A stretch of DNA of 64,000 bases from Perkinsus chesapeaki (lineage: Eukaryota > Perkinsozoa > Perkinsida > Perkinsidae): positions 4,505 to 68,504 of the forward strand of contig JAAPAO010000044.1 of assembly GCA_013115145.1 (NCBI GenBank), written 5' to 3'. A program made the translations under genes and the position numbers. Shown in pieces: positions 19,010 through 63,736 of the stretch (positions are counted from its first letter, which is position 1; each line of letters begins with the position of its first letter). The notes beneath the pieces were generated by a model, which was not told where the DNA came from, did no database searches, and saw only the letters and a list, made by a program, of their open reading frames with translations.

Positions 19010-19701
19010 TCATCTGCATTAAACGTTACGTACACACACGGAAGATTGTGAATATCTATTTGCACCGCTCCGTCTATTTAATGGGTATTTAATCTGTTAC
19101 TCATTTCTGCATGGAATTCGTACCTTACGGTTCGCTATGTTTCTCCCATGCCCGGCAGTTTAGTTCACAGTGACAAAGCTAGAGTGATCGCTGGTGGCCT
19201 TGCCAGCACGAAGCAAAGAAATGCAAACGTGATGCAGAGAATCTGCTAAGGTCCAAAAGCCATTGCTGGTGTTCATAAAATCGAATAAGTCTTGTAATGC
19301 ACACTAGGTCCACGCGAGCTCTGTACCAACCTTAATGGGTGCAAACTACATCCTATCGAGATAGCTGCAGCAAGACTTTTTGTCAAAAAGTTTTTGACCG
19401 AATGGAGGATAATCTTCATATATGGAGATAGGTTTGAGATGTGACAATCGTCGAACGCCTTGTATCGTTAAGAATGCTGAAAACCTCTTAGTAGTCAAGG
19501 CTCATCCAGCACATTAGAATGCACTAGGTAAACGATTTGACTCACCATGCCACAGCACACTGAAGACCACATTCGAACTGGTATGCGAATACAGAGGGAC
19601 TGTCCTATAGAGCAGCTTGTATTTGGAAGACCAACGTCAACTTGTGGTGGGTCGTATAAAATCTTTCGACAGTGTCACACAGAGCGAACAAGTTGCCTCC
19701 A
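19010..19701. other. intergenic, holds one X-N-X'-N-X triad
   Basis: No coding signal. The only structured element is the 14-nt-period triad at 19377-19396. Confidence 0.5.
19376..19396. repeat. 14-nt triad: tttttg / caaaaa / tttttg
   Basis: X 19377-19382, reverse complement 19384-19389, X again 19391-19396. Base 19376 (c) pairs with spacer 19390 (g), so the first two arms form a 7-1-7 palindrome. Confidence 0.9.
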
Positions 19702-20274
19702 ATGGCCGGTGTATTAGGTAATGAACGCATAGCATCTCTTAAGAGATACGTTATGGCCCTCGACAATCTGATGCCTCACACTCAAGTCCAATCGCAAACT
19801 CCGTCTGTGACTACTGTATTAGCAGCTTGCATGGTTGTTGTCAATGAGCAACTCAGGTCGCTCCTCAGTGCGAACGATTGCTTGGTCGGTCAGCCAAGCC
19901 GGAGTTCTCCTTTGCTGTACTGGAGAGTATCAAAAAGGACTGTTTTCTGCAGTGTGCATATCGCAACTACCTCACCGGAACATGTACGCTCAATAACATC
20001 TGTAAAGGTAAGAAAATACATTCTAGCACTTGCCTTGTGCCGCCGCGCGCTGGAGAATAGGGTGCATATTAGTGATTACAAAAAGCTTAGTTTCCCTCTT
20101 GGCCGCGAAGAGCGGATGCCTCTGTCCTCAATCATGCTAAGGTGTTCAGATAAGGATTTCTTCTTTGTCGACACTCGAGAGCGGGAAGAGACCAGAGTGA
20201 TGCTCAAGATGCACGAGGTCACCGAGGATCCTTACCTATTCCTATGCACACCAATGATGCACCGTACGAACTGA
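19702..20274 (+). CDS. hypothetical ORF, possibly broken gene
   Basis: Open frame of 190 aa from ATG 19702 (MAGVLGNERIASLK) to 20274. The first 60 and last 70 residues look coding. In between, the +1 frame looks better (SFAVLESIKKDCFLQC, then NYLTGTCTLNNIC, a CCCH-finger-like spacing) and ends at a consensus donor AAAG/GTAAGA at 20007. The two frames cannot be reconciled by one splice, so this may be a frameshifted gene. No family assigned. Confidence 0.3.
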   Translation: MAGVLGNERIASLKRYVMALDNLMPHTQVQSQTPSVTTVLAACMVVVNEQLRSLLSANDCLVGQPSRSSPLLYWRVSKRTVFCSVHIATTSPEHVRSITSVKVRKYILALALCRRALENRVHISDYKKLSFPLGREERMPLSSIMLRCSDKDFFFVDTREREETRVMLKMHEVTEDPYLFLCTPMMHRTN

Positions 20275-21232
20275 CAAGCTCTGCGCGCTGTACTTCGCTA
20301 TCATGACTATCAAGAGAAAACACAACTCCCAAGCCGTCTTCGGATCTTGTCGTCCTTCATACACTAGAGGAATAGGTCCAAGGAACGGTACTTTCCACAG
20401 ATTCGTCCAGCCGTGACACAACCGCCCCGTGTTCCGACTTTGAATGGGTCTGCGAAACTCAGGTACTTGGTGGTTCCACTCGGCTTTCAATTGTGAGAAT
20501 GATAGACTATTCGACAGCCAAGATGAGCATGTTAAGTGCCTTGATGAGCTCAGGGAGAGTGCCATTATGAACAACGTGACAATTTTATAATCTGCTGTGA
20601 ACGAGATGCTCTCCGCAGATTCCCGATGGTGGAACTGCTGGCCTACAGCGCTCTATGGCTGGCAGTTACTCCCCTCTACTGTTTATGCCATGCATTGTTC
20701 TCGTAGCTATCATTGGCGACGATGTAGTGCTGCTGCTGGTAGCGACGCTTTTATCGGTGGGACCAACCCGTCCGCATTACCCATCAACGTGTCAGGTGTT
20801 CCTACTGTGGATATCACGTTTTTGTAACCACTATCATAAGTATCTTCACGAGCGCCACTATTCCATCTTGCTTCGAGCTCTCTTTGCTTTCTGGTTGGCA
20901 TTCCGAGTCTTACAAACTGGGCCAGCGGATCAAGGTAGATTACCCACAAACTACTGTATTCATGCGTGTCGTGCTACTTGTACTAATGTATATCATCATC
21001 AGTATTAAGGAGCAAAGTCTTAGCCCTTTGAATAATGATCTACCTTGTCGCTGTTAATCTGTAGAGTAGTCTCACATGAGGCGCTTGTGGTTGATGAGTG
21101 CTCAATGCCTTGTCCAGGATTTCATCCTCGACAATGTTTCCGATGATGGTTCCTTTTGCAGATAACTGGACCTTGACATCTATGTCGCGTACCATATCAT
21201 GTGTTTTAATGGTAACAATACTCGACTTAAGC
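20275..21232. other. no certain gene
   Basis: Short overlapping frames on both strands (for example 20655-21008 plus, hydrophobic) without splice support or recognisable motifs. Confidence 0.3.
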
Positions 21233-21559
21233 TCATTTCAAGTACTGCTGTTTTCCTTCCAGATACTCGATTTTATTTTCGGCGACGTCATGGGTGCATT
21301 TAATATTCACAAACGAGGCGTTAAGTTTGAGATTCTCAAGAGGCTTCCGGTGAGGGAGCCGACCGTTGATTACTGTCAGGCTGGGGGACGCGTTTCGTAA
21401 ATGAGATGCCCTGGGCACATAAGTAGCATCTGATGATGGAAGGGTCTCTTCCAGAAGAACTCCATCATCATTCAGGCTGAGTGCATAACATGCAGAATTC
21501 CCAGTATATAAATAATATAATAAACCGTCGAATGTAATCGGCACTTTGCGAAGATACAT
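21233..21559 (-). CDS. exon of a propeller-like protein, partial
   Basis: Open frame of 108 aa whose ATG follows an acceptor-like CCCTGAAACAG on the minus strand. It contains ITFDGLLYYLYTGNSACYALSLND, the kind of strand-turn-strand repeat seen in the propeller-like family at 60205-61038, and a plausible continuation to NKIEYLEGKQQYLK. It may be the remaining exon of a family member. Other exons were not found. Confidence 0.38.
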   Translation of the reverse strand: MYLRKVPITFDGLLYYLYTGNSACYALSLNDDGVLLEETLPSSDATYVPRASHLRNASPSLTVINGRLPHRKPLENLKLNASFVNIKCTHDVAENKIEYLEGKQQYLK

Positions 21560-22823
21560 TCTGTTTCAGGGACGACTATACGTCTGCCGCGAAGTTATCA
21601 CATGGCCGAAGGACAATCAACGAGCATCAACGGATCGTGAATTCAGCTGTGTAGATGACGCTATTGTCGCGGGTACTGTTGTTTCTTATAAGTGCTAACT
21701 TAGGGAGCCGTCATTGGCCAAGACATCTATCGTGATTATGCAGTGAAGCAAAGAAAAGACATAAAGCTGTTGTGCGATGTTCAAGGTTAAGGTGCAATAT
21801 GTCCTTTAGGAGAACTTATTTCAGGTATGATTTGCTGGTTGCAACCTATCACTAGACACGATCTGCATGCGCTGATGTACTGTGGTGATGTACCTTTACC
21901 CATTCCAGTGTATTCTACAGCGACTTTCAATGTCGAACTTCAGCTTGCTACAGTAGGTTTACAGTAGGCTACGGTAGTACTCAACATATCAGGATTCAAC
22001 GGCAAGGATTGATGCGTACGGCAAAGCGCGACGTCGAGCTGTGAAGTGAAGTACACATTACACATCAGGATACGCCTTGTATGCTAGGGCATGTGTTGCG
22101 TTGGCTATTCAATTCTCAATGTCAACCGTGAGCCAGCCGTTTCGGGCCAGGACTCAAGGCTGAGTCGGGCGAATATCTTGCAAAAGTTCGATGCTTGCAA
22201 ATTGTTGTGCCAAAGATTCTGATCACCGCTTCAAGGACTCCCAGGTTCCCGCGAAATCTTATATATGTCTCACATATAGGCATGCTCATGAAGAGCAGTT
22301 GATCGCGAAGTATCCTATATGCAATCGAAATGATCTTGTCTTGTGTAGAACAGGATTATCTTGCGCTTGCGGTTCGTGGAGTTCGCACCCCTCCAATTCG
22401 TGCATTTACTGCCGCAGTGTACCCGCGCTCCGGGAGAACTTGGGGATTCTCCCGTCCAGCTTATGCTATCCTGGCTTGACCAATGAGAACAAGACGTCCT
22501 GGAATAGTCTTATACCTTGTTCTCATGTGAGGTTTACCAAATCCAGGCCACAACATAGACCTGGGTTATGTCTCACGCCATCCTAGATTGACACTGCGCA
22601 CAACAAAACATCTCCTGTATTATACAGTCTGTATAGTGCGATGAGCGCATAAGACTGACAAGTATGTCCCAAGTTTGAGAGACAAACTAGAATCGGTAGT
22701 AAATACCGACCCTTCTATGAGTTAATATATGAGATTATGAGGTGTGACTTGTAGCTTTATCCTTATGATAGCCCAAAATTAGCCAGACCAAGATGGCAAC
22801 CCATCTAACATACCAACCAAAAG
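21560..22823. other. intergenic
   Basis: No supported gene. An 11-bp inverted repeat with a 24-nt loop lies near 22482-22529 (arms atgagaacaag / cttgttctcat) and an 8-8-8 hairpin near 22430. Confidence 0.4.
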
Positions 22824-23429
22824 CTAGTTAACGGTGTGCACACATACACCGATGCAGTAACCTCCTTCAGAGCATTCCTAAATAACAGAAAGATATGTAC
22901 GGGATTCTGAAGCTGCTTACACTATCAGAAGAACACTTCACTCCGCAGAAGTTCAACGCGTCGAAACATTCCGCCTCGCCGCTGGGGGGCTGAGGGCAGT
23001 CACTTGCGTTTTCGCAACCCACTGTACAGAGAGCGCCTGCGAGTTTACTCGTTTCGTTATCCTGAGAAAGTGAGTGTCTGAGTAACACCTATAGATAGTT
23101 TTCTCACAGTAACAGTGACGAGGTGACTGGGCTGCTCGCAGAAGCAATTCTCGTCATTCTCACAACTCCCGGTTGGCTTCTTGTAGACGTCACCTGAATA
23201 CGGCATAGATTTCACAATGTCAGTTGAGGGTACCATAGTCAGTAGTAAGATGTCTGGATAGGGAATACCTGGAAGTATCAGGCTCAAAGCAGATCCAAAC
23301 TGCTGGCATAATAACCAACTATTAGTCGCACGGTAGATCGTACATGTGTCCTTCGGAGTCGCTGATGAGCTTTACTGCAATGGTGCAGCTGAAAGCCGCG
23401 ATGAGCAGAACGATGTGAATGAGTTGCAT
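22824..23429 (-). CDS. small secreted Cys-rich protein, four exons
   Basis: Exons 23429-23376, 23302-23108, 23061-22921 and 22877-22824, all phase 0, give 147 aa. Introns of 46 nt (GTGAGA..TCTCAG) and 43 nt (GTAAGC..ATTTAG) match this genome's usual size; intron 1 is 73 nt. Exon 1 is exactly a signal peptide (MQLIHIVLLIAAFSCTIA). The mature part is acidic and then Cys-rich: SCENDENCFCEQPS, ALCTVGCENASDCPQPPSG, CFDALNFCGVKCSS, ECSEGGYCIGVCVH. Cysteines come in closely spaced sets, as in extracellular disulfide-rich modules. No named family is recognised; lineage-specific secreted families of this kind would fit Perkinsus. The acceptor of exon 2 could be 3 nt further on. Confidence 0.72.
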
Positions 23430-25047
23430 ACTGATGCTTTCCCAATTCTTGAAGAGAGTAGCAGATCTTTTAAGCTGATTCGCGTTTAAAAAGCTTATTC
23501 AGCTGAGGGGAGCTATGTATAGCTATTAAAACCGAGCATGCGGGAGTCACCGACTCGTAAAGTGTCTGCCTCCAGCTGTATAGCGTGACAGAATTAACTC
23601 GATCGAGCAGTGCTCAGCGCTCAAACAGTGTTATTGCTGGAGCGACTTGTCGAAAGCCGAAGCAGCAAAGGGAAGCCATGTTTTACAACATTGTTATGAG
23701 GTAACGCCGCGTACGCGTTCTACTTATGTAAATAATTCTGTTTGCTAGGCTCGGCGTGTGGAAGGATGGCCGAAGCTCGAGAACTATACGGCTGGCAATG
23801 GTTCAGTTTGAACTTCAGAATCTGAGGATGAGCGAAACATGCAACATTGCATCGCAAGATGAAGGTCACCAAGAAACAAGGCGACGCCAGGAGACGTCAA
23901 GTGCTAAGCTTTTTCTCTAAGAGAAATTCTCTTCATTATCTCATCGAAAGTAGACTTTCTCTTCGCAAGAAGGCTGAGAATTCAGAGAATGTACTTGTGC
24001 AAAAATGAACAAGTTTCCTTCGGTCCGATGTATGGCCAAAAATGCTTCTATACAGCTACTTTTTCTGCTCATAACGAATTGCACGCTCAAGCTTGGATGC
24101 ACTGTTGACTCCCGCGCAGCGACGCCACGAAAATGTTAAGGCGAGTAACTATTGTGCTGACAAAGCAGATGCGGAGTCCCTCACGTCGTTATATGCTTGC
24201 TCTTCGTGAGAATGTAGTGATTGGCACAAATTTGTCTTGGTCTCGAATATTTTCGGGATTGTTGCTGGAGGATCAGCGAATGCGCGTCGCGGAGCCAGGA
24301 TATACGTTGAAAGGGGTTGCGGAGCCACGATGCATATGTCCAGGCGAGTTACCCTAAGATCTCAGCTAGTTGAGCCTCGAGGCATCTCCCATCGATGACT
24401 TGAGGCAATGCATCATGGGTATCCGATCAGGTTTGGTTGTTTGAACTCTCAGCAGACCAGCAGAAAACTATGTATCACGGAGCTCCAGCAGGCAGTGAGC
24501 AGCTTCGCCCAGAGTTGTCGGTCCGACAGAGAGGAATCTTCTCAGGTCACCAGTGAGTAGGTAGATCTTTATATTACCAAACAGGTTTTCGAATTCGACC
24601 CTCTACCTTTGCAAAAGAAATCAAGGGAGGCCTGACGTGGTCCACAGCGACGCCGGAGATTTTGTTGGCTGTGTAGTTCAGTGAGTAGTCGCCAACCCGA
24701 GTTCAAAACTTATTCTAATCCTTGCCATCATGACTCACATTTTGTGAGACATGAGAGCTTCCTGTTGGGAAGCACCTATACTCCCGCGCTGCCCCACCAA
24801 CAGCTTGGAACTCCGTTACTTGAGCCAAAACTGTTGGTTAACACGTGACGCACGTGCTTTTTTTACTTTCCGGCACTTCAATACGAAGGATTATCGTAGA
24901 AACGCGAATTGACTTATATGTCCTCTATTGGAAGTGGCGCGTCAGACGTGTGAGACTTGAAGAAATGCTGAGTGTCGACTCGCTCTAAGCGAGTCGCGAA
25001 GGCTGCTAGAGCAAGTATCCGAGCATCGCGAAGCTATTCACAAACCT
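23430..25047. other. intergenic, holds one triad and several hairpins
   Basis: No supported ORF. It holds the triad at 23913-23932, an 8-3-8 hairpin at about 24976-24994 (gactcgct / agcgagtc) and a 6-3-6 hairpin near 24735. Confidence 0.45.
23912..23932. repeat. 14-nt triad: ttctct / agagaa / ttctct
   Basis: X 23913-23918, reverse complement 23920-23925, X 23927-23932. Base 23912 (t) pairs with spacer 23926 (a). Confidence 0.9.
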
Positions 25048-25251: not shown

Positions 25252-25624
25252 GCTGTGAAAGCTTTGCAGGGCATCCTCTGTAGCCGAAGCGCCTATCGTT
25301 TTATCATTGTATCTTCATGGTATATCATCTTGATCATAGGAAGGCTTCGATGGGATGAATGTAAATTCAGTTATTAGTATGTCAATCATTGAGATCATCG
25401 CTCTGCTAACGAGCATCTTCCTCAAGGTATCATCACTCGATCCGCTAGATGGGAGGGTCTTCTTCGTGAGGGATATTTCGACTCATACTTTGGCGATCAT
25501 TATTGCATTCTCGCAAGTATCAGGAGTGCCCTATGCATGTTCAACATGCATGATGCATAATGCATCCAGTACCATCCTAAGTCCATGGCAGTAGATTATG
25601 AGGACTATTCTGTATATCTACCTG

Positions 25625-25813: not shown

Positions 25814-25815
25814 TC

Positions 25816-25829
25816 TGGTGCCCAGACCC
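25816..25829 (+). promoter_or_regulatory. primer binding site candidate
   Basis: Two bases after the 5' LTR comes tggtgcccagaccc, starting with the TGG that pairs with a tRNA CCA end. The priming tRNA was not identified. Confidence 0.6.
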
Positions 25830-25838
25830 AGGATCGGC

Positions 25839-26762
25839 ATGCCGTTCAAGCTCGAATCTGTATTAGAGCCCTATGCTGGTGGGGATGAAGACTTTGCGCT
25901 TTGGTTGCGTGAGTTCGAGACCGTGGCCGAGGCCTCGAAATGGTCTGCTAAGCAAAAGTCGCACTATATTGTCTTACTTACAAAAGGCTCTGCTAAGGAC
26001 ATCGCGAGGGAGGCCCTCGATGAGGTTGACAGCGATTCTGCCGTGGCTTATGCTCACGTTGTCAAAGCTTTGGATAGCGCCTACTCGCTCAAGACACAAG
26101 ATGCCTGGTACCTGCTGACCCATAGGCAGTGGCATAAGGAGGACACTGTTGACGGAGTCCTTGCTGAGTTTAGGCGTTACCTTAAAGTCCTTGCCATCTC
26201 CAACTCTGTGGCTAACGAGAACATTCTGAGGGAGAGTCTCTTGGCGGCCCTCCCGGAGGAAGTGAGAAAAGCCATCCGTATGTTCGAGGAGAATGGGCGA
26301 CAGCTGCCATTAGCCGATGTTGTGGTTAAAGCAAGAGCTCAGCTTAAAACCCACAAGTTCGACAAAGATTTGGCTGCTGCTGCTGTTACTATATTATTAC
26401 CTAATATTGTTACCCAATATTGTTACCTATGTAAGACAACTGGGCATACAGCTATCGATTGTGCCCAGCGAGGTGTGGGGTCTTCTACAACCTCCAAAGG
26501 TGACGAGCGAGTCGCTCGGAGCGACCTAGAGGCAAAGGCAAGGGTAAAGGCAAGGAGCGAGGAAAAGGTCCACGTTGTTATGCCTGTCAAAAGTATGGCC
26601 ATATTGCTCGAGATTGCAAAGTTAAGTCAGGGAAAGCGGGTGCAGCAGTTGATCAGGATTTTGGGCCGGCAGGGCAACCGACGGGCGAGGTTGTTCTGCA
26701 CATGTAAGACGCCCCTACCTGCTTTGCAAGTTCAATGGCGAGGAGCACGCCATTGGGGTTGA
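25839..26762 (+). CDS. Gag polyprotein of the LTR element, frame broken near 26505
   Basis: Starts MPFKLESVLEPYAGGDED and runs as a capsid-like helical domain (retrotransposon gag: WYLLTHRQWHKEDTVDGVL, YLKVLAISNSVANENILRE) to one zinc knuckle CYLCKTTGHTAIDC (CX2CX4HX4C). After about 26504 this frame becomes meaningless. A second knuckle, CYACQKYGHIARDC, lies in the -1 frame, open 26504-26704 with stop 26705-26707. The register change coincides with a 14-nt duplication-like palindrome (26505-26524). Removing 14 nt puts both knuckles in one frame. So Gag probably had two knuckles and is now truncated or miscoded in this copy. Confidence 0.85.
   Translation: MPFKLESVLEPYAGGDEDFALWLREFETVAEASKWSAKQKSHYIVLLTKGSAKDIAREALDEVDSDSAVAYAHVVKALDSAYSLKTQDAWYLLTHRQWHKEDTVDGVLAEFRRYLKVLAISNSVANENILRESLLAALPEEVRKAIRMFEENGRQLPLADVVVKARAQLKTHKFDKDLAAAAVTILLPNIVTQYCYLCKTTGHTAIDCAQRGVGSSTTSKGDERVARSDLEAKARVKARSEEKVHVVMPVKSMAILLEIAKLSQGKRVQQLIRILGRQGNRRARLFCTCKTPLPALQVQWRGARHWG
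26504..26524. repeat. 14-nt triad inside gag: gagcga / tcgctc / gagcga
   Basis: X 26505-26510, reverse complement 26512-26517, X 26519-26524; base 26504 (c) pairs with spacer 26518 (g). It lies exactly between the last codon open in the gag frame with sense and the start of the second-knuckle frame. Confidence 0.92.
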
Positions 26763-30299: not shown

Positions 30300-30304
30300 A
30301 CCTG

Positions 30305-31790
30305 AGATACGCCGTACTGCTTATATTCCCCGGAAACTGGTCAAATCCAAGCTTTCACTTCCAAGCCAAGTAACTTGTGCTTCCCCAAGCATCTATGTAT
30401 TTCCCAAGCACCTATGTTAATCCATGCACTGCGGTGCAGTGTTTGGATTAACCATGTTATTGCTAGGTACATGGTAAAAGCCAAGTAAGTAGGAGCTGCA
30501 CTCTTCTGTGTAGAATGTGTAGTTAGTTACTCCTTGTTAGTAACGCAATGCACTTGAGTATTATGCTAGAAACAGTCACGAATCTTGACCGCACTGGTGA
30601 CCTAGATAAGAGCAGATTTTGCTCGCATAAGCACGGCTCACACCTCACGAATTGACCCTCGCTGATAGTGCTTCGTGCCCCGGATTTTCATCTCGTGAGC
30701 ATATTGAAGGATATCAATTGGTTCTGGTCGTTGTAGGAAGTGTTGAGGGCTTGAACATTTCATGGATGTAATCACCTGTGTTAAAAACACAGATCTTCTG
30801 TTTCACCAAATTTGCGGATCCTCGCTGCAAACTTCGAAATGTCAAGTCTGCGCCGTTTAGCCAGGATGATCACAAGTGAGACCAGTCGTAACAGTGACTT
30901 ACTTGGGTTCCTACGAGTCCTTCAGCCGTCAGAGCAATATTAGGGTGTCCATACTTGTTGACATCCAGAGTATTACGCAAGTACTCTGCGCCACGAACAC
31001 CCTTCTCTTCCGCGGCCATTATGAGTGCCTCGGAAAGGCACTTATATATACTAATGTAATTAATGCATTGGTACTGTTTTGGAGTTCATATACTCAGTAA
31101 TTGCGGAGAAATGAAAGATACAAGGTTTCGCCTATCAAAAATGCACGGTCTGTACTGTCCGTTGGTGTAAAATGCCGCCTGACTGCTCAACATTGTCGGA
31201 ACTCATTATGAAACCGATACTGTTAGTAACAGTCTGTTACCGTACTAGTGCAATATAAGAGACGGAAAATGACGATGATCAGGGGAGAGTCTCCCCGGGA
31301 GACTTCCCCGCCACATCACGTCACGAGAAGCGCCAGCGATGCGGTCACCGGCGTGTCAAGGTATAGGGGGTTGTGAACGATACCAAGTGTAGTCGTTGAA
31401 GGTATAACTTGTAGAAAACGCAAATCAGAACCTTGCACCTAATACGCACTTGTACCGGGACAAGAAGCGTCAAGTTAATACGAATAAAAACGTATACTTA
31501 CGTCGTATACCTACGTACACGATCTGTGCACTTATACGAGTATATTGCAGCACCTAAGCTATAGCTAGCCTAGCACAGCTCAGCCACAAGATACGTTACT
31601 CAAAGTCGTCACAATAATTGTCTACTTAATTCGGGCCAACGGTTTTCTAGGCGCGTGACGGAGTGTGGCGCGTGACGAACGAATGCATCCCACAACAGGC
31701 GTGCGCATAGCGCGCATGGCGTGCGCCACCGATAACAGTTGGGCTGGCGCGAAGGTAGAATTTATGTCGTTTGACCTGCCGATATTTAAA
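30305..31790. other. intergenic, hairpin-rich
   Basis: No supported ORF. A compound inverted repeat lies at 30416-30452 (outer arms gttaatcc / ggattaac, inner cactgc / gcagtg). A gtgcct / aggcac hairpin lies near 31025. An 8-1-8 palindrome lies at 31288-31304 (agtctccc, c, gggagact). Two copies of gcgcgtgacg lie at 31651-31677. Confidence 0.5.
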
Positions 31791-31853
31791 TTACAATTGA
31801 GAGTAATCTCCAACGGGGAGGCCTGGATCGCACCAGTGTATCCCCCTCTCCAA

Positions 31854-31874
31854 GGTCCGCAGCGGACCGTCCGC
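31854..31874. repeat. 14-nt triad: gtccgc / gcggac / gtccgc
   Basis: X 31855-31860, reverse complement 31862-31867, X 31869-31874; g31854 pairs with spacer c31868. Confidence 0.9.
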
Positions 31875-31904
31875 TTGATGGTCCTTCAAGTTCTTTGAGA
31901 AGTG

Positions 31905-31925
31905 AAAATAGGCTATTTTAAATAG
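31905..31925. repeat. 14-nt triad: aaatag / ctattt / aaatag
   Basis: X 31906-31911, reverse complement 31913-31918, X 31920-31925; a31905 pairs with spacer t31919. Confidence 0.9.
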
Positions 31926-32054
31926 CAACGAGCTGAAAATATACCAAGTATACCAGCAGCTTCCTGAATATAAGTGACCATTTCGCACACCAGGTAAATA
32001 GGTTTTACAGGCTCGAAGAGCTCCTTGGTGAGCGTCATGAACACACAGATTTAT

Positions 32055-32075
32055 GACATGAATCATGTCACATGA
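32055..32075. repeat. 14-nt triad: acatga / tcatgt / acatga
   Basis: X 32056-32061, reverse complement 32063-32068, X 32070-32075; g32055 pairs with spacer c32069. A further 9-1-9 palindrome follows at 32083-32101. Confidence 0.9.
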
Positions 32076-32258
32076 TGCCATTGCGATGTCATTGACATCG
32101 CTCAGCGTCCTCTCCCCATCTGTTAAAACTTGAACGAGCACATCTAGATGTCCCAGCAAGTGATAGTATATCTCGTAGCACTCTTCGTCAATAATCGCCA
32201 AAAGAAAAGGTACAAACGTGTGCCTGTGTTCATGCTCACGGCTAGGCCTGAAGCGACC

Positions 32259-32279
32259 ATCCAAGCCTTGGATTCCAAG
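32259..32279. repeat. 14-nt triad: tccaag / cttgga / tccaag
   Basis: X 32260-32265, reverse complement 32267-32272, X 32274-32279; a32259 pairs with spacer t32273. Confidence 0.9.
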
Positions 32280-32423
32280 GCAGGTTAAGCCAAATTGTTT
32301 CTGAACAACAGCTCGTCTCCTGTCACCTCGAGTCTCGAAAGACATGAGAAACCAGCTAAACTCCCAATAACCCTCATGCAAACATTACTTTCATCTGTTT
32401 GATAATGATAGAGAATTTGTGAA

Positions 32424-32609: not shown

Positions 32610-33574
32610 CCAAGTAAATCAAAACAAAAATTTGCAAGACACACCATACACAACCAGCCTGACTTCACATCTCTATAACCTGGTAGGTTGAACCTACATT
32701 ATATTGTCAGTGAAAATTCCTACATGTTAAATCCTAAACCCGTCGCAGTCTAGACTCTAGACTGCGACTGTCGCAGACACTAGCTTCTCTAGACTCTAGA
32801 GAATAGCCAACGACTCACGTGGTTGGTTGCCAGACACTGGTGTAAAGCTGGGGATGTACTGCAACTGAAATGCTAAACAGCAAAACCGGGAACTTGGGCA
32901 TCGCTCTACACGCCCAACCAAATGTCATCGCTCCACCAAATTTCTCGCGCGTGCCCGTGTAGCCTCTGGCTACAGTAGCCACTACGCTCATCAACTCACA
33001 ACTTTTTGGGCCACTTACCTGGATTTGTATCGCTTGGGGGGAATACGGTTGGTCGGAGCATCAAAAAGGAAGTGACGAACACTATTTGAAAAATAGAATT
33101 TATGGCTGCCATAAATTGTTGCCGCAATGAGAAACGAATATTGAGGAGGTCTGGCGTAATATAGAGACTTTCATATGATATGATATGATATGAATCATAT
33201 CAGCATGTACTTTCTTGTAATATTAAGGACTTCTTCTAAGCCAGGTGAGCGGCTCACTTGAGCCACATAGAAACATCAATGATCCGCGTATTACTTACCG
33301 ATTCGTCGTATTGCGGCGCTCGAGACCATGCCATGTTCGTGCAAGCCTCGCACTGCAAAGTGCAAGAAAAGCTCAAAAATGAATCTTTCACCCACCATTC
33401 GAAGTTGTGTGCCCCTTTCACAGGCAGCGAAGACCTTGGGAAGTTCCCAAGGGCTAATTAGCGTCTGAAGGGGGCCTCAAATTGAGGCCGCCTTCAGACG
33501 GTTATATATTGGTAGCCGATTACTCCCCACCTAACGCAACCCCTTCAGCCATGGACGGAAACAGTTGAACATGT
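32610..33574. other. intergenic block with strong single-base-spacer palindromes
   Basis: No supported ORF. Near-perfect palindromes with a 1-nt centre: 32742-32768 (13-1-13), 32785-32803 (9-1-9), 33187-33201 (7-1-7), 33245-33257 (6-1-6), 33434-33452 (9-1-9) and 33462-33500 (19-1-19 with one mismatch). The first is followed by a third partial copy of its left arm (32770-32776), making a 28-nt-period triad. Confidence 0.8.
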
Positions 33575-36500: not shown

Positions 36501-39500
36501 CGGTGAGTTCATCGATGGCTCCATAATAATGGTTCGGCTCTCGGCCTTAAGCCATGGGCCTGAGGGCTAGAGTGAGCAAGATGAGCAAACGGTCTAGTCA
36601 ACACCTGGCGTTTGCTGGTGATGCTTAGTAATCTGAACTGACCCGACTGGACGGAGTGGAGGGAGAAGTTCGGCCTCCTAAATCCAAGGAATTGATTCGG
36701 CACTCATTTGAAGAAGAGATTATTCAATGGTACTATACAGAACCAGAGTAACATCCAAGACAGGGATCAAGATGAGGCTCATTGCAAATGTCTATCCGAG
36801 AGTGTGTAGTGGGCGAGACCCTCTCGCCCTCCCAGAGCCTGAAGCCAAGAGGCTAAGGGCCCTACCTGTAATAGGACAGCTGCCGATGAATCGGTAAAAC
36901 CATCAAGTATGGCTTTAGATGGGAAACCATGGCGTTCGAGAACCCTGCGGATGTGATTCAAGGCCGTAGTATCCCACCTACACAACAGAAGACTTAACAG
37001 ACGCTATAACATAGAAAGATTTAATCTTACCTCTCGAACGCCAGAACGCCCTGCAGCGCCTCATCTGAGCGTCCAAAGTGCTCCATGTGTCTGATGGTAA
37101 ATTGTCAGTAACCTCCCCTTTAGGCGGTTACCGTGCACTCGCTAGCAGCTCCCGAGTTGAGAAGGGATAGGAAAGTAGGCCATCCATAGTGAGTTGGCGG
37201 AGGTCGCCGAACACCGACACCAACTGGGACAGCACTCCCATGGGAACCTACGAGGGAAGGAGGAGCAGTTTTGGTTGTGAATAAAAAGTAGAGGGCAGGC
37301 TCACTTTTGGGGCGACGGAGCGAACTAGCTCGAGTTCTGAGTTCTTATCGGGGTTGTCCAAAAGAAAGACCGAGAACACATCACCGCACTCCCGGAAGAA
37401 GTCGTTGCCGAGGAACGGGAAGCCGGGCCGATTGCTGAGGAGAAGAGAAATCTTAGAACGACCGGCCAGCTTGGAGTGTTACCAGAGGACAACACACTTG
37501 AAGTGTGGGTGGATAGGCATGCTTAGGCCCTGCCCACCAAGGATTCGACCATCAGGCAGATTCAAATAACCGTCCTCGAGCAACGATTTGAGGAGGATAA
37601 CCACCTCGAGAGGGGCCTTGTCCGCTTCGTCGAGGACAATCCAGCGCCCTAAAGACAAAGAGAATTAGAGGGCCTTTCTCAAGCCAGCATGCCTTCGATT
37701 GCTGCTTTAACTAAGGGAGACTCCTTCCAGGTGATGGCACCATCTTCGAGCTCAGGAATGCAGGTCAATGATCCCACGGTACTGTCGCGATGAAGCTGCA
37801 TATAGTACCTGAAAACCATAGTCAGACTTAAGCGCTCCGAAAGCGAATGAGAGGTTTGAGTGCAGGTCCAGCTATGGAGTTCAGAGTTCAGGGCCGCGTA
37901 GAAGTGTTCAAGATGTACGGGAATAGAGCTCGAGGTTATTTATAGAAACGTAGGGAACGTGGAAGTCACTCGCGCTCCATACGTGGGCCCTGATTTATTA
38001 TATTTTTTGTGAGTAGCACGGAGTGCATGTGTCCTAAGTTAGGACTCCTAACTCCAGTGGAGCTAGTTCGCATGCGACAGAGCTGGGAAGTGCACTATCT
38101 CTCTCTGTCTACCAACCCAATCCGCCATGCTTCTTGAGTGATGGCTTAGGCGTTGAACCTTTCATTCATTTATGGTCAGTGAAAGCCGCACACCGGAGGT
38201 ATTTGGCAGCGGGCAAACTGAGTGGGTGGTGTGCTGTTTGGAGCCTCTCTCACCTCTCCACCCCCAGCAGCTCCATGTAATAGTCGATGACTTTATTCTT
38301 CCCGACACCTTGAGGCCCCACTATCAATAAATGTCGTTCACCACGCAGAAATCTGAATAAGACTGGACCTTCATCAGCAGTATGGTGACTTACAGATCGG
38401 CATGAATTTCCGACATAAATCTTTTATGTGAAGGAATAGGCACAAAGCTGTCACGAACATGAGGGACCTGACTTCACCAATTACCAACACTCGCCTATAG
38501 CACCTACCAACTCAGGCCGAGAGCCTTCAGCTCTCGTAGAGTACTTCGGTGCCTCAATGCCGGAAATAACCACAGAGCCGCCGAGCTCAGACAGCTAGCA
38601 TGAGACCATTCGCAATAAGCCACTTGGCGTAAGCTCCGTTACAGTGACTTCATCGCTAGAGCTTCGGCTTGCATTTGCGCTGAGTGCGGCTTCTATGAAG
38701 GCTTTCGGGAGAGCATCGCGCTCTACGGCGGGGACAAGATCGAGGAGTAGCTGTCGCCACATCACCGATGCTATGAGCTCATTTGAAGGCGATTCTCCAG
38801 AGCAACTGCATAGGTAGGCAAAGAGCATTCACCAGAGAGAGTCATGAAGTGTTACTTTTTGGCGATTCTAAGGAGCCTTCTCAAGGTGAAAGGAGGTATC
38901 CCTTGACAGCCATCTACTGCTGTTTTAAATGACAACAGAGACGAGAGAAAAGCTGAAACATCTGTAGGTTCGAGAACTAACCAGAGGAACACTCCTCGAG
39001 GGAATCTAGCTTACCTGATCCATTGTATTTAGCCGACAGTATCTCGGTTGCGAACCCATCGTTCATGACATGGAATGAGAATAACCCCATTACCTATGAA
39101 TCGGTTTATTCTTGATTGCTGTATTATTAAGATACCTCTGAGGTTAGCCATGGGTTACCTTGAGTAGGTGGATTGGCTATGGCGATGATGCGGAAGTTCG
39201 GGTGTACATGGACAACTTCAGGCCCCTGAAGGATTACATTTCTGTGCATCTGGGAGGAACTGACTAACGCCCGATTAGTTCAGCTGGATAGAATGTCTGC
39301 CTACGGAGCAGATGGTCGTAGGTTCGAATCCTGCATCGGGTATTTCACACAAGCACTTGCTTCATTGTCACCAACGTTCTCATAACGGCTTGTCCCTCCC
39401 GGAGCGATATGTCGTTGAACAATACCAGTGCAATGCATCACCACTTTTTGAGACTCAAACATTGCTCGTGTGTCGATATTTCACATTCGTGAATATTCAA

Positions 39501-49118: not shown

Positions 49119-52100
49119 ATTGGAGCGTCATGTTCAATCATGACCTATGCATTCACGTTGCTTTTACAACTTGTGCTTCATTTGTGTTGGTGTGTTTTCA
49201 AACGGTAAGATTGTCGGATTTATTACACCTCATCAGCTATGTTCGAATGATCGTTCGATGTCGTCGGCCGCTGCTCTGTGGGCCGTCAGCATCACAGCGA
49301 GGGTTGGATGCCACTTCGGCTGTGATTCACTCGACAGGTGAGCTCGTGCGGATGTGTTTTGAGGGGGGTGGGGGTGGTATAAATAATGTGTTGGACAGTA
49401 AATACAGATATAAGGCTCTCGTCGACATAAATTTTCATACTGCTATTTAAGTTGCCTTTATTTCTCGCCAAGTGTATTGCATATGGGACATCATCGCGGA
49501 GAGATGCCGAGATTTGTGGGAGGATCATCACTATCGCAATAGCTTTTTTCAACTTCTCATTCATGGATCTGACACATGCGTGCCGATCGATGTAACAATT
49601 TCCTAAGAGTCTTTCGAAAATGGGCTGGATAGGTCGGGAAAGCGACATTCATCATGTACAATTTGCTCAAGCGTCGAAGTTGCCGTAATTCAGATGATTC
49701 TGGCGGCACCTTCTCCACCGCATCTCGGTTTGCTGCCCTGCAACGAGCGTATGCTGACAACCATTCCGAGTGGATATATCAGCTCAACACTCGAACACCA
49801 TATCATCTTTGGAAAGGACCAGGAGTTATATTTACCCCAACTGGCTTCCAGATGCGACTGCCGAGGTTCCAGGATTGGTAGGCTACGGTTATGCGCATGC
49901 GTGCGAAAAGATACGCGTAGGTACTTTATGGAGGGTGAGAGTATCTTTGAGAATGGTAAAGAACTTGAAGTGGAAATTTCGGGAACAGGCGACCCGACAT
50001 GGTCTGTGAACAGGAGTAAGGTTTGCATCGCTCCGCTAGAGAGTGTTGCATGTTTTCGGATTTTTAGGTTACAAGGAGCGGTCGAGCGTTAACATCCTGG
50101 CAGCAACTAATGCCAATTCGAGGATGTTTTGGCTTTACATGAGTGCTGCCAAAGCCTTTAATATCGACGTTGGATCATCACAGCTAACACTTCCTAATAT
50201 GCGGCTTATACTGGGGCATCCGAAGACAGCTTTGAGGTCACTTGGGATAGTTGGGGCGCATGAAAAAGTCGGAGATCTCGGTATTGTGTGAGTTTTTGTG
50301 CTGATTGTGAGGTGTGCAGAACTCACAGAACCTGATTGGCACCATATTGCTCACGGAAAGGAATGGTCTTGGAAGCTTCGAGTTGTTGATTTGAGGGGTT
50401 TTGTGGATGATGGTTATTGACTATCTTTCTTAGGCTACTACAACCGGAGCTAGCTCATAAAGTTCGGCGAGTTTATTTTCACCATTTGGATGCTGGAGCG
50501 GTTAGTCGGCACAGGCCTGTAAATATGACATCGACTCTGATGAATACAGTATATGATGTTTTGAGGTGAGGACTCCTCACTGAGCCTCCTGGAGGCTCCT
50601 CACTGAGGAGGCGGGTTATTGATCATTTACGAACCCAGTCTTGGTAATGTTATTTTCGCTAATACCTGGTATCTCCTGGTGAGTGTTTTTCTTCTTATTA
50701 ACCCAAAAGTATATGCTTCATAGAAGCATGCGTTTACACACGGATGGGTAGCAACAGCAGCAGTGCCGAATGTCCCCTAGAACTGAAACGAATGCCCACT
50801 TTGAGCTGCCGCTCGGCCTATTGGTCTCTACAAAGGGAATTGTATGCGTCTGTTGGACATGGCCTATAGTGTGGTTTCATCAGAGCTTAGTGTTTGAACA
50901 ACCTGTTTGATGTCGAGGTCTCGGAAGAATCGTGAGAATCATCGCCCTAAATCCAACTTCTAAGCTCTGCCAAACTCGAGCCATGGGGGGTGATATGGTA
51001 TCCTATTTAGGGAAGGCGAGGGTGAGTTCCATGTGGTGACCGATAATGAAGGATTTATGCACAAAATAGTGGCGATAATGCACGAGAAAAGGTCGGCTAG
51101 GGTGGCGGTCTGCCTTGAGGCAAATGACCGAAGGGTTCCTATACCACTCGCTGCTCTGTGCTCTCGGCCAGAGATGCTCTTGTGTCTGAGTTGATGTAGT
51201 CTATTGCACTCTTTTTCCTGTGTTTCAGTGACAAGTTTGAAGCAGGATATGAGTATCCATTTTACGGTGCAACGGAAAAGGACACTCGGAGGCTGCCGGA
51301 GACTTGTGAGTGGATTTTAGGGGACAGTTTGTGTGTAATTCTGTGTAATAGGATTTAGGCATGTACAATGTGTTAATTCTGATCGATAGTTATAGTGAAA
51401 TGGTCGATCGATATCAACTGTGTGTATACGGTATACCATTGAACTTTGAGATCTCAAACCACCCTACGGTAACCTGAATAGTATTCGGCCACACAGTAGA
51501 AGTGTCAGGTCCACAATACTTAACGAGAAGTGTTTACTCTGGTGGGTTGCCAGGACTCATGCCCGAGAATGAAAAGCGAGCTCGAACTGAATCTAGAAGA
51601 TATCTTCTGGATGCGGAGATAATTATAGACAGAGGCAGCGATAAAGGGAAGGTTAGACTGTGGAAGGATAAGGAGGATGCAGTGGATGTTTATAAAGGGA
51701 ATCAAAGGTAGTAGAGTTACGGCGGATGATGAACGTGAAATAAATTCCATGAAATATCATTCAGTGAAACCCGAATTTTATTGGAATTCGGCGCCGGGAG
51801 GTTTCGGTGTTATTTTTATCCTTCTGGACGGAATTTTCGGAGATAGGAAATTTTAGTGGTTCTCGAATGTCGATAAAATATTGGTACTCTGACGGGCCTC
51901 ACTTTGTTGAGGGTTAGTTGTCAGTTCGAGATGGGGAGACAATTCTTTGTGTTGGGGTGACGCGCCGCCGCTCCATGGGAAACCTGCGTTTGGTCGTCTG
52001 TTGGTCCCGGATGGGGGGCATGCTTGGGTTACTTAGCGGAATGTGAGCGCGGGCAGACCGATTGCGTTGGGCGCTTCACCAGACGGATCCCAAAGTGTCG

Positions 52101-53156: not shown

Positions 53157-53216
<60 letters not shown>

Positions 53217-57390: not shown

Positions 57391-57530
57391 CTTGAGTGTC
57401 GATCTGTACATAATAACACTACCCCCATCTTTTCCCTCATCAGTGAGAACTATATTACTCCCGCTTTTACTGCTAAAGCTGATGATGCCAGTAGACTACT
57501 GGCAGTAATACTGGTATCATCACTGGTCTA
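57391..57530. other. short intergenic
   Basis: No feature seen; leads into the minisatellite. Confidence 0.5.
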
Positions 57531-57955
57531 GTCCCCGTATTACTCCTGTGACCAGTACAACAGCTACTACTACTANNNNNNNNNNNNNNNNNNNNNNNNN
57601 NNNNNNNNNNNNNNNNNNNNNNNNNNNNNNNNNNNNNNNNNNNNNNNNNNNNNNNNNNNNNNNNNNNNNNNNNTATTAGTACTCCTGTGACCAGTACAAC
57701 AGCTACTACTATTAGTACTCCTGTGACCAGTACAACAGCTACTACTATTAGTACTCCTGTGACCAGTACAACAGCTACTACTACTATTAGTACTCCTGTG
57801 ATCAGTACAACAGCTACTACGACTATTAGTACTCCTGTGACCAGTACAACAGCTACTACTACTATTAGTACTACTCTATCTGATGCACCAGCTATATACT
57901 TCTCATTTTTCATCGTCTTAGTTTATGTCAACGGTTCGCTGTATTGCCGCCGCTG
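57531..57955 (+). CDS. Thr/Ser-rich repeat protein with hydrophobic C-terminus, gapped
   Basis: After the gap (57576-57673) a plus frame reads repeated TISTPVTSTTAT. It ends LSDAPAIYFSFFIVLVYVNG..YCRR with stop at 57955. The same frame occurs before the gap. Repeat units are 36 or 39 bp, always multiples of 3, which suggests that a reading frame is kept. A Thr/Ser-rich stalk followed by a C-terminal hydrophobic segment is the layout of mucin-like surface proteins. The 5' end is unknown: an in-frame TAA lies upstream of a possible acceptor at about 57531. Confidence 0.5.
57542..57880. repeat. 36/39-bp minisatellite, interrupted by N gap
   Basis: Units start at 57674, 57710, 57746, 57785, 57824 and 57863 (36, 36, 39, 39, 39 bp). 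The longer ones carry one extra act triplet. One unit is visible before the gap. 98 N at 57576-57673 probably mark collapsed copies. Confidence 0.92.
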
Positions 57956-58045
57956 ATCACTTCATCGCATTAGCGAGGATACTTGTGTGTTGCGTTGGAG
58001 TTACACGACCCTTCGGTAGTGATGATCCTACGGTTAACAGTTTAA

Positions 58046-60080: not shown

Positions 60081-60204
60081 AAGACTTGAATACTTTTATA
60101 CTTTTTGAAGGTCTATTGTGATGTACCATAATAATAACAGTGTGCTCTACCATGTTGGTAGTTGAGTTATCGTGAAAGGAACAGTGCTGAAGCTTTTCGT
60201 TGCC

Positions 60205-61038: not shown

Positions 61039-61608
61039 ACTCTTCAACTAACGCTGTAACATCTGCTGTGGATGAATCTGCTTCATCATTGCGAGTGGAG
61101 TATGACGCGCAATTCTTGCACCATTCCCCGTACCCGTCTTTCGGCGACGAGTTTCTATCAGCTATAAAATGATAAAATTATGTTTCAAAGGGAGTAAGGT
61201 TGACTGGAGTTCCCGTTGAGGAGTGATCATAGGCGTCTTCAAGGTGATTACGAGCGATTTTAGTGAACTCGACAACATAGTTGAAAATGAAATAATATCC
61301 GAGTCATACAAGCTACAAACGGCAGACCATAGCCTACGGGCCATAGATATCGACGTAAATGATTCACGGATGCTAACGCAACTGTCCATGTGCGACCATA
61401 ATACGACACTATGACGGAAGAAAAACAATCTCGAACTATTCTGTTTGTTGTATGGAGAGCGCTAGCCAGTGAAGATCGTACAAGGGCACATACCTTACGC
61501 AAATAGATATGATAGACGCAAACATCGATAGACGCGAGTGAAAACGACTCGATTCATGTCATAGTGCCTGAGTAGACGAAACACGTCAGCACATAACCGG
61601 AAGAGCTA

Positions 61609-61629
61609 CTTGGTAGTACCAAGTTGGTA
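61609..61629. repeat. 14-nt triad: ttggta / taccaa / ttggta
   Basis: X 61610-61615, reverse complement 61617-61622, X 61624-61629; c61609 pairs with spacer g61623. Confidence 0.9.
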
Positions 61630-61734
61630 CCGTGATACTTGAGCTTATTAGCAATGAATAGTGCGGTACGCTTATGATCATCCATTGGGGATTAGTCATC
61701 ATTAACTGAGATTATTCATGTTATAATTCATGGT

Positions 61735-61755
61735 CCTGGCTTAGCCAGGCTGGCT
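61735..61755. repeat. 14-nt triad: ctggct / agccag / ctggct
   Basis: X 61736-61741, reverse complement 61743-61748, X 61750-61755; c61735 pairs with spacer g61749. Confidence 0.9.
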
Positions 61756-61962
61756 AGTTTCAACGTCCAGGGGCGCGATGACTTTGATGATGCATGTTTG
61801 AGGATCTTAGATTGAGATGTAACCGCCCGAGACAGGTATTAAAGGTTCAGCTACGGGAAATCTCATTCTGCTCTTAGAGCTTGATACAAGTTCGGTCTGC
61901 ACTTTCGTCTTTCGAGGCAAGTGCAAGCCCTAGAACCACGGTAATGTGATGTAACCGTGCTA

Positions 61963-61983
61963 CTCACGTAACGTGAGTCACGT
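61963..61983. repeat. 14-nt triad: tcacgt / acgtga / tcacgt
   Basis: X 61964-61969, reverse complement 61971-61976, X 61978-61983; c61963 pairs with spacer g61977. Confidence 0.9.
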
Positions 61984-62204
61984 TGCATTCATAATACCGA
62001 CTTACCCTATAGTCGCTTCTGTCGGAGACACGCACAAGACTTCCCTCACGGGCCCGGACTGACGGCAGTGTTGAATGGAATAATGTTAGACAGCCTAGGA
62101 AATCCCAATTCTGGGGCCGAGAGTAAACTCACAGCACAACATGAAACAGCGTCGATGAAAACCAGTACCAGGCGCAAGACCCTGATATCTGGGAGGTGGG
62201 TAAC

Positions 62205-62339
62205 TGTTAACCATCAGGGAACTCAAGAAACAAAGGTGAGGCTAGAATCTAAGAATCTAATCTTAACTTAGTAAATTAACAGCAGTACTAGCGTCAAGCT
62301 GAGCTAAGGTTCCATTGTTGTGCAACTCACACAACAACA
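62205..62339. repeat. left 135-bp terminal repeat
   Basis: TG...CA ends; pairs with 62671-62805. Confidence 0.85.
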
Positions 62340-62347
62340 TCCCCCTT

Positions 62348-62368
62348 CCTCCAGTCTGGAGGCTCCAG
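62348..62368. repeat. 14-nt triad: ctccag / ctggag / ctccag
   Basis: X 62349-62354, reverse complement 62356-62361, X 62363-62368; c62348 pairs with spacer g62362. Confidence 0.9.
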
Positions 62369-62670
62369 AGACTAGCAACACAGGGAATTAAAAACTAACA
62401 TACATCAACAGCAATGTAGATCTCGTCATCGTCATATTGGATCAACATAGGAATCACATATCGCAAAATCAAGTTGTTCTTGGTGTTGAACCTTATCAGT
62501 CTTCTTATCAAACTCGTCAGTCGTCATGTCGTAAAATATTAGGATTACCAGTAACGCCAAAATCAGATGCAATTTGCTAAGCGACAGGAATAGGGATAGA
62601 TGTAGCAGGGCTCTCCACCATGTTAACCATCAGGGAAGAATAGGAATAGATGCAGCCGGGTTGTCCTCCA

Positions 62671-62805
62671 TGTTAGTCACCAGGGAACTCAAGAAACCAA
62701 AGTGAGGCTAGAATCTAAGAATCTAATCTTAACTTAGTACATTAACAGCAGTACTAGCGTCAAGCTGAGCTAAGGTTCCATTGTTGTGCAACTCACGCAA
62801 CAACA
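62671..62805. repeat. right 135-bp terminal repeat
   Basis: Second copy, followed by gtaac at 62806-62810. Confidence 0.85.
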
Positions 62806-62810
62806 GTAAC

Positions 62811-63736
62811 CGACGCCGAGATAAATCATGGCTGAATGACGCTACTACCAGGCACAAAAGATCACTAGAACATACTATTGTTAGAATGTCAAGCCTTGTC
62901 AAAACTGGGCTCAAATTGAGCCGCTCAATCGGTACCATGTGAACTGGTCACCGCCGTACGAAAGTGACGAGGTAAAGGAAAATGTGATGGACAAGGGAAA
63001 TATAGAAATAAAGACAGACTCAGATTCTGAGTCTGTCTTGACGCAAAGCTTCTGAGTCTCACAAGCTTTGCGTAACAAGGAAATTTGTTATCAGGAAGGG
63101 GACAGTATTGAGGTGCGTCGCACATGGAAAAGACTAGTCTCATTTCGTGAATTCTACTGGCATTAGGTATCGTTAGCTTCTATGGATCTTCAACTGTAAA
63201 TAAGTACACATCGTAATATCAGCTACTTAGTGGTCATTGCATGACATTGCTCACCATGTTTCATACCGGCTGCCATATGGTGTAATTGCAAAGTGCAAAG
63301 TGGGGCTCCACACAGTTTGTTTGGTCTGCGCGAATGTGTGTGGCATAATTTCTCGGTACATGTTCATGTGGGCATTCGTGAATATCTACAACTTATAGAC
63401 TACAAGTTTATTTAGCTATATAGATCTCAATAAGTATCTACCTGCTCATTAGAATCATCCCGATATCCAATTTTGCAGCTGGCCATGAGCAACTCGTCGG
63501 GGACAAGGCGGTAAGTCGCGGCGCCGCTCGTCAGCCCATTAGTCATGTAACGTGACACGATGCCGAGTAGGTACTTATAAATTGTACGGTGGGACTCTCA
63601 GTGAGGGTCTATCACCGTTAGAGCAACTGATCGTTATGTGTCGATCATGAAAGTATGTCTCTTTGTGGGTTAATAACATGAGAATTACTGATGATGCAAT
63701 GTTTGTTCTGTCATCAAGAATCCCTTCTTTTGATAA
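62811..63736. other. intergenic upstream of protease gene, palindromes
   Basis: No supported ORF. A triad lies at 62909. A 13-1-13 perfect palindrome lies at 63012-63038, and an 11-11-11 hairpin directly after it at 63041-63073. Confidence 0.6.
62908..62928. repeat. 14-nt triad: gctcaa / ttgagc / gctcaa
   Basis: X 62909-62914, reverse complement 62916-62921, X 62923-62928; g62908 pairs with spacer c62922. Confidence 0.9.

What the first reader, a model, noticed from the sequence alone, without database searches (positions are those of the whole stretch)
19376..62928. Recurrent 14-nt triad: X6-N-X6'-N-X6, thirteen exact copies in 64 kb
Read directly: a hexamer, one base, its reverse complement, one base, the hexamer again, always with a 14-nt period. 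Starts of the first X: 19377, 23913, 26505, 31855, 31906, 32056, 32260, 38032, 61610, 61736, 61964, 62349, 62909. The hexamers differ, so this is not a shared repeat sequence but a shared geometry. With 12 constrained positions and even base use, chance predicts about 64000 x 4^-12 = 0.004 cases. In all thirteen the base before the first X also pairs with the second spacer, which makes each a 7-1-7 palindrome followed by a 6-nt direct repeat. Equivalent reading: a 14-nt insertion made of one base, the inverted copy of the preceding 7 nt, and a 6-nt repeat of the target. The constant lengths suggest a stereotyped enzymatic event (fixed-geometry template switch or repair of a hairpin end), or sites kept for protein binding. 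I know of no described system with this exact form.
Basis: seen in the sequence. Interest (0 to 1): 0.93.

Follow-up and report, generated by a model that had tools for sequence, protein, structure and literature searches.

The report
Identical 14-base scars of departed transposons
The repeated 14-base pattern is real and is best read as the scar left each time a hAT-type jumping gene leaves the DNA of what is probably a Perkinsus parasite of shellfish; what is unusual is that the scars share one exact shape.

Summary
The full form, a-X6-d'-X6'-a'-X6-d, reads the same on both strands. In 323,153 sampled bases of this genome 50 have the complete form; no other target length from 6 to 14 bp gives more than one. 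Three of three fetched paralogues carry one intact GTCCTAAC and lack exactly the 14 nt present at 38032.

The geometry is that of a hAT-type transposon: an 8-bp target duplication and flank hairpins offset by one nucleotide. The inferred targets show the hAT motif nTnnnnAn (50 of 100 half-sites against 26.4%, p = 4e-7), and so do decayed copies. Seven "twin palindromes" keep both hairpins separately.

Likely mechanism: the transposon leaves, both hairpins are opened 8 or more nt from the tip, and the opened strands anneal through their shared 8 nt, which always adds 14 nt. Against this: classical short hAT footprints are not in excess, no resident element was identified, and transposase remnants are few. 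The kind of event is known; its uniformity and abundance are new to me.

The parts
6201..6222 (.). triad scar with one outer pairing missing (X6 GTAGAG)
   Evidence: partial
19376..19397 (.). full triad scar a-X6-d'-X6'-a'-X6-d (X6 TTTTTG)
22614..22635 (.). triad scar with one outer pairing missing (X6 CTGTAT)
   Evidence: partial
23912..23933 (.). full triad scar (X6 TTCTCT)
25545..25566 (.). triad scar with one outer pairing missing (X6 ATGCAT)
   Evidence: partial
26504..26525 (.). full triad scar (X6 GAGCGA), inside a gag-like retroelement ORF
31219..31240 (.). full triad scar (X6 CTGTTA)
31282..31303 (.). full triad scar (X6 GGGAGA)
31854..31875 (.). full triad scar (X6 GTCCGC)
31905..31926 (.). 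full triad scar (X6 AAATAG)
32055..32076 (.). full triad scar (X6 ACATGA), apparently nested in another hairpin-type scar that reaches to about 32101; a paralogue (L021) lacks both
32259..32280 (.). full triad scar (X6 TCCAAG)
32742..32803 (.). twin palindrome: two one-base-centred palindromes whose centres are d' and a' of one inferred target, GTCTAGAG
38031..38052 (.). full triad scar (X6 TCCTAA); three paralogues carry the empty target GTCCTAAC and lack exactly 14 nt
50566..50610 (.). twin palindrome, inferred target GTGAGGAG
61609..61630 (.). full triad scar (X6 TTGGTA)
61735..61756 (.). full triad scar (X6 CTGGCT)
61963..61984 (.). full triad scar (X6 TCACGT)
62348..62369 (.). full triad scar (X6 CTCCAG)
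62908..62929 (.). full triad scar (X6 GCTCAA)

Best explanation
Each triad is the excision footprint of a hAT-type DNA transposon. (1) The element inserted at an 8-bp target a-X6-d and duplicated it. (2) On leaving, the transposase cut each flank one base outside the element and sealed the strands into hairpins: left ...aX6-d'X6'a'..., right ...d'X6'-aX6d.... (3) Each hairpin was nicked on its far side, 8 nt or more from the tip, so it unfolded into a 3' strand holding the whole inverted target. (4) The two strands are complementary over those 8 nt, annealed there, lost any flaps, and the gaps were filled. The result is always a X6 d' X6' a' X6 d, 14 nt longer than the empty site, whatever the target sequence and wherever the nicks fell. 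Shown here: the exact geometry, the 8-nt target size, the empty paralogues and the target motif. Inferred: the hAT transposase as agent, the nick positions, and annealing as the joining step.
For: Paralogues: 3 of 3 fetched copies (of 13 other matches listed) have a single GTCCTAAC and lack exactly 14 nt at 38032. One further paralogue lacks the 32056 scar and its neighbour. Target size: 50 complete structures for 8 bp; 1, 0 and 0 for 6, 7 and 9 bp; 0 for 10-14 bp; for 8 bp, 0 with a blunt or 2-nt offset. Target motif: T at position 2 or A at position 7 in 50 of 100 half-sites, p = 4e-7; non-window stretches alone 37 of 70, p = 2e-6; window alone weaker, 13 of 30, p = 0.03. Decayed copies with 1 and 2 substitutions carry it too: 35 of 76 and 55 of 104. 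nTnnnnAn is the published Hermes target (passages of PMC10368747 and PMC2803484). Seven twin palindromes have two centres that both fit a single 8-bp target. hAT C-terminal domains match at 4 places in the genome.
Against: No resident element with 8-bp duplications and terminal inverted repeats was identified: a strict scan gave 0; a relaxed one gave 13 candidates, against 5-13 for eight shifted controls, and these were not inspected singly. hAT transposase matches are few: PF05699 at 4 places in open frames of 97-246 aa, DUF4371 at 2; the two fragments used as queries found 2 and 0 relatives. Classical short hAT footprints are not in excess (7 against 4 in one shuffle), unlike plants, yeast and Candida. 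The assembly is 884 contigs, so repeats may be missing from it. No excision was observed.
Confidence: 0.86

Rival explanations
1. Short-range template switching during replication: the polymerase turns back, copies the other strand for a few bases and returns, leaving an inverted copy between direct repeats.
For: It produces inverted copies next to their source. PMC7954356 (passages) reports a median switched length of 12 nt in great apes.
Against: The same passages report a spread of lengths (up to 128) with gains in 65.0%, losses in 29.5% and no change in 5.5% of events. Here one length exists: 50 at 8 bp against 0-1 at the other lengths from 6 to 14 bp. A symmetric target motif is not predicted.
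Confidence: 0.04
2. Excision footprints of another superfamily with 8-9 bp duplications, such as Mutator-like, Merlin or P elements.
For: Muta1 makes 8 or 9 bp duplications (passages of PMC5225508). A listing with the start of its abstract shows a paper reporting Merlin in Alveolata (PMC8101967; not read).
Against: For Muta1 donors without duplications small deletions of 1-4 bp predominate (the passage on donors with duplications is cut off in what I saw), and the text has no occurrence of 'hairpin'. There is no 9-bp class here. The nTnnnnAn motif and the one-nucleotide offset point to hAT.
Confidence: 0.05
3. Programmed removal: a hAT-derived enzyme removes insertions in a regulated way, as ciliates remove internal eliminated sequences, so that the sequenced form shows scars without elements.
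For: 66 exact scars were found in 323 kb with no excess of candidate resident elements. The product is uniform.
Against: There is no second, element-bearing genome to compare. Draft assemblies lose repeats. The scars are of all ages, which ordinary transposition also gives.
Confidence: 0.06
4. Sites kept for binding by a protein or as RNA hairpins.
For: The spacing is constant.
Against: The X6 sequences differ from site to site. The fetched paralogues lack the sites exactly. Copies with 1, 2 and 3 substitutions are as common, above background, as exact ones.
Confidence: 0.01

Closest known systems
Ac/Ds (hAT) excision footprints in plants, budding yeast and Candida albicans
   Same: Palindromic additions centred on the complement of the base bordering the element; made of flanking DNA, not of element DNA; microhomologies in yeast and Arabidopsis; yeast arms up to 20 nt (passages of PMC5873905, and of PMC4561436). 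The 8-bp duplication of Ac/Ds is recalled.
   Different: There the footprints are many and, in Candida, short: 28 types among 128 excisions, inverted parts of at most 3 nt. Here one full-length type dominates what can be read, and the short classical form is not in excess.
Hermes / hobo hAT transposons
   Same: 8-bp targets with nTnnnnAn; hairpins on the donor flanks.
   Different: No resident element has been identified in this genome sample.
mPing (PIF/Harbinger) repair through target-duplication microhomology
   Same: The two target copies serve as microhomology and make one product predictable (passages of PMC4561436).
   Different: mPing has staggered cuts, 3-bp targets and precise repair. 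Here hairpins make the annealed copy inverted, so 14 nt are added.
TcBuster (hAT) excision in human cells
   Same: Small complementary insertions attributed to flank hairpins (passages of PMC3499496).
   Different: Insertions of a few nt and deletions up to 50 bp, not one fixed form.

Membership tests
hAT excision footprint | 8-bp target duplication | tested here: met
   50 at 8 bp and 0-1 at the other lengths from 6 to 14 bp; a single copy of the 8 bp in three paralogues
hAT excision footprint | palindrome centred on the complement of the base bordering the element (one-nucleotide hairpin offset) | tested here: met
   (for 8 bp, blunt and 2-nt offsets give 0)
hAT excision footprint | target preference nTnnnnAn | tested here: met
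   50 of 100 half-sites, p = 4e-7; for decayed copies
hAT excision footprint | footprint made only of flanking DNA | tested here: met
   all 14 added nt derive from the 8-bp target
hAT excision footprint | hAT transposase in the genome | tested here: met
   PF05699 matches at 4 places, in open frames of 97-246 aa; whether any is active is unknown
hAT excision footprint | resident element with terminal inverted repeats between such duplications | tested here: inconclusive
   no excess in about 0.3 Mb; low power, draft assembly
hAT excision footprint | excision observed in cells | not testable with these tools
   needs experiment or resequenced strains
classical short Ac/Ds-type footprint | two target copies joined through 1 to a few inverted bases | tested here: not met
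   7 at spacer 2 against 4 in one shuffle; clear excess only at spacer 8 (51 against 8)
Transib/RAG-type coding joints | 5-bp duplication, blunt hairpin (recalled) | tested here: not met
   blunt geometry 2 at 5 bp against 0 in one shuffle, and 0 at 6-10 bp
short-range template switch | variable length of the switched piece | tested here: not met
   one length only

The most novel reading that the evidence does not exclude
This lineage runs a near-complete, possibly regulated removal of hAT-type insertions: an enzyme that opens hairpins beyond the target, together with annealing through the target copies, turns almost every insertion into the same 14-nt scar, so that the sequenced genome carries thousands of scars and hardly any element. 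That would be a hAT-based counterpart of ciliate DNA elimination that leaves a fixed scar.
Probability: 0.08. Interest if true: 0.88.

Novelty: new variant of a known kind. Interest (0 to 1): 0.62.

Why it matters
The scars are a self-reading record, spread over this genome, of how a cell repairs hairpin-capped DNA ends, the problem that V(D)J joining also poses. Each scar gives its own empty site, so transposon traffic can be counted and aged even where no transposon remains. The uniform product makes testable claims about where hairpins are opened and about the target duplication as microhomology. The substitution spectrum of the scars fits steady production over long times (inference), so excision would be a regular source of 14-nt, frame-shifting insertions in this lineage.

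Tried and rejected
Tried without result: resident elements with target duplications of 4-10 bp and 13-nt inverted repeats (6, 4, 0, 0, 0, 0, 0 for 4 to 10 bp) and a relaxed 8-bp version (13, no excess over shifted controls). DNA searches for paralogues of 26205-26805, 61500-62100 and 22400-24200 found only the window itself. The tandem copy beside 62349 loses homology before the triad, so it does not test it. Paper searches for Perkinsus with palindromes, hAT, footprints or genomes and for protist footprints showed no title or abstract on these scars; listings only, in a library without most subscription journals. Yu et al. 2004, a key yeast paper, is not held.

Rejected: chance; palindrome-rich DNA in general (other spacings lack the excess); binding sites; template switching; a motif common to the X6 copies (they differ). 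I considered loss of end-joining genes as the cause of uniformity: a Ku domain (weak, 28.3 bits against a cut-off of 25, with stops inside), an SNM1/Pso2-type domain and one family-A polymerase are each matched once, so plain loss of these is not supported.
Full report
WHAT WAS CHECKED. The complete scan finds 18 in the window and 0 or 1 at each other spacing tested. One hundred fourth-order Markov shuffles gave none. The genome that holds the window, G000 (35.4 Mb, 884 contigs), is probably a Perkinsus: the protein at 3943-5370 has one relative at E up to 0.001 among the 7,999 candidates scored, from P. marinus ATCC 50983, 82% identical over 29% of the query. The species is not settled.

ANATOMY. 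Writing the unit as a-X6-d'-X6'-a'-X6-d, both outer bases pair: a with the second spacer, and d with the first. The reverse complement of the structure has the same form, so it has no direction. In 29 stretches of G000 including the window (323,153 bases, 304,582 without N; single-letter X6 left out) there are 66 triads, of which 50 are complete; the other 16 lack one or both outer pairings. The stretches were not a random sample: 16 of the 20 were picked blind, but others sat beside the window, beside hAT matches or on contigs already known to hold triads. In those 16 blind stretches (L004-L018 and L023), one search lists 24 triads (one a T-run, two overlapping) in about 144 kb without N. That extrapolates to roughly 6,000 in the assembly; this is an estimate, not a count.

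ONLY ONE LENGTH. I counted the complete structure for every target length from 5 to 14 bp in real and in one set of shuffled DNA. Real counts were 10, 1, 0, 50, then 0 for 9 to 14 bp; shuffled counts were 4, 0, 0, 0, then 0. The blunt form gives 2 at 5 bp and 0 from 6 to 10 bp. The 2-nt-offset form gives 6 at 6 bp against 4 shuffled, and 0 from 7 to 11 bp. A length-8 unit with a one-base centre is the one clear class.

EMPTY SITES. The window at 37800-38300 belongs to a repeat family with 13 other matches in G000. In 3 of 3 the sequence reads CATGTGTCCTAAC, with one copy of GTCCTAAC, and the alignment shows a gap of exactly 14 nt opposite the triad. The other ten were not seen. A second case: a paralogue in L021 (80% and 87% identical over the two matching pieces) lacks the triad at 32056 and a neighbouring palindromic insertion, and carries ATAACATC where the target that I infer by hand for the neighbouring insertion is ATGACATC. 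So these triads are insertions, and the ancestral site held one 8-bp unit.

TARGET MOTIF. With the 8-bp unit a-X6-d taken as an insertion target, position 2 is T (equivalently position 7 is A) in 50 of 100 half-sites, background 26.4%, p = 4e-7. The effect is in the stretches outside the window (37 of 70, p = 2e-6) and weaker in the window alone (13 of 30, p = 0.03). Both bases fit in 14 of 50 sites and at least one in 36 of 50, so it is a preference, not a rule. Decayed triads with 1, 2 and 3 substitutions show it as well: 35 of 76, 55 of 104 and 84 of 222. This is nTnnnnAn, the published preference of Hermes (passages of PMC10368747 and PMC2803484).

TWIN PALINDROMES. The DNA is rich in palindromes with a one-base centre (94 of arm 7, triads included, against 8-24 for centres of 0 and 2-6 bases). 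Seven pairs of such palindromes share one X6 and have two centre bases which are exactly d' and a' of a single 8-bp target; two lie in the window (32742 and 50566). Their inverted parts run 8-14 nt on the left and 8-28 nt on the right of the tip. They look like the two opened hairpins joined end to end instead of annealed.

MECHANISM. In hAT excision the element is cut out with one base of flank, and each flank is sealed into a hairpin. The published sign is a palindrome centred on the complement of the bordering base (PMC5873905; PMC1978519; passages of each; the detailed Hermes chemistry is recalled). For a target a-X6-d the left hairpin strand reads aX6-d'X6'a' and the right one, on the other strand, d'X6'-aX6d. 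If each is nicked at or beyond the far edge of the target, their 3' ends carry d'X6'a' and aX6d, which are complementary over 8 nt. Annealing them, trimming flaps and filling two 7-nt gaps gives aX6d'X6'a'X6d, a gain of 14 nt, for every target. Shown: product, target size, motif, empty sites. Inferred: nick position, annealing and the enzyme. In Candida, 28 footprint types occurred among 128 excisions and inverted parts were at most 3 nt; in yeast the maximum arm was 20 nt. Here the short classical form is not in excess, so the hairpins seem to be opened far from the tip as a rule. Detection is biased: footprints with deletions leave no readable structure.

AGE. Structures with 0, 1, 2 and 3 substitutions number 51, 38, 52 and 111, against 0-1, 0-4, 3-20 and 42-80 in ten wrong geometries on the same DNA. 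(The zero class is 51 or 52 where single-letter X6 are kept, and 50 where they are left out.) After subtracting this background by eye the classes are about equal (roughly 51, 37, 42, 50). That is what constant production with random decay predicts: excision has gone on for a long time and is not one burst. This is inference from one sample.

WHERE IS THE TRANSPOSON? hAT C-terminal domains (PF05699) match at 4 places and DUF4371 at 2, one shared neighbourhood being 105-106 kb of the window's own contig. The two fragments that I used as queries have 2 weak and 0 relatives. Scans for resident elements found no excess. Either the elements are short-ended and rare at any time, or they sit in the gaps of a draft assembly, or they are removed with great efficiency. 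This is the main open point and the ground for the novel case.

VERDICT. The finding is real, not chance, and not protein-binding sites. It is best explained as the excision footprint of a hAT-type transposon in a full-length, uniform variant that I did not find described in the papers I could search (listings, and passages of eight papers).

Noticed in passing
window 32742-32803, 50566-50610; L009:7772-7833, L012:6049-6127, L017:52-87, L019:9441-9499, L021:7858-7916: Twin palindromes: two one-base-centred palindromes sharing one inferred 8-bp target, with inverted parts of 8-28 nt.
   Followed up: yes
window 26821-30018: Long retroelement-like ORF (DUF7047, Integrase_H2C2, rve_3) with a gag-like ORF before it at 25818-26762; only one copy of 26205-26805 found in the genome.
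   Followed up: partly
window 37847-38167: Part of a repeat family with 13 other matches in the genome, 68-82% identical.
   Followed up: partly
L029:6813-7831 (contig C379 near its end): Fragments of a hAT transposase (DUF4371 and Dimer_Tnp_hAT) on the window's own contig, with a triad at L029:7945 just beyond.
   Followed up: partly
several palindromes, e.g. window 32742 and 32785, L021:7858 and 7886: TCTAGA recurs as the core of one-base-centred palindromes; it fits the nTnnnnAn target and may be a favoured target.
   Followed up: no
window 31220-32280 and 61610-62929: Triads are clustered (6 in about 1.1 kb, 5 in about 1.3 kb), and no exact triad lies between 38.1 and 61.6 kb; possibly local hopping or selection in genes.
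   Followed up: no
window 57674-57872: Tandem array of a 36/39-base unit beside a 98-base run of N.
   Followed up: no
window 53157-53216: Perfect ACT triplet repeat, 20 copies.
   Followed up: no
window 3943-5373: Protein with ALMT/FUSC transporter domains; relative in P. marinus.
   Followed up: no
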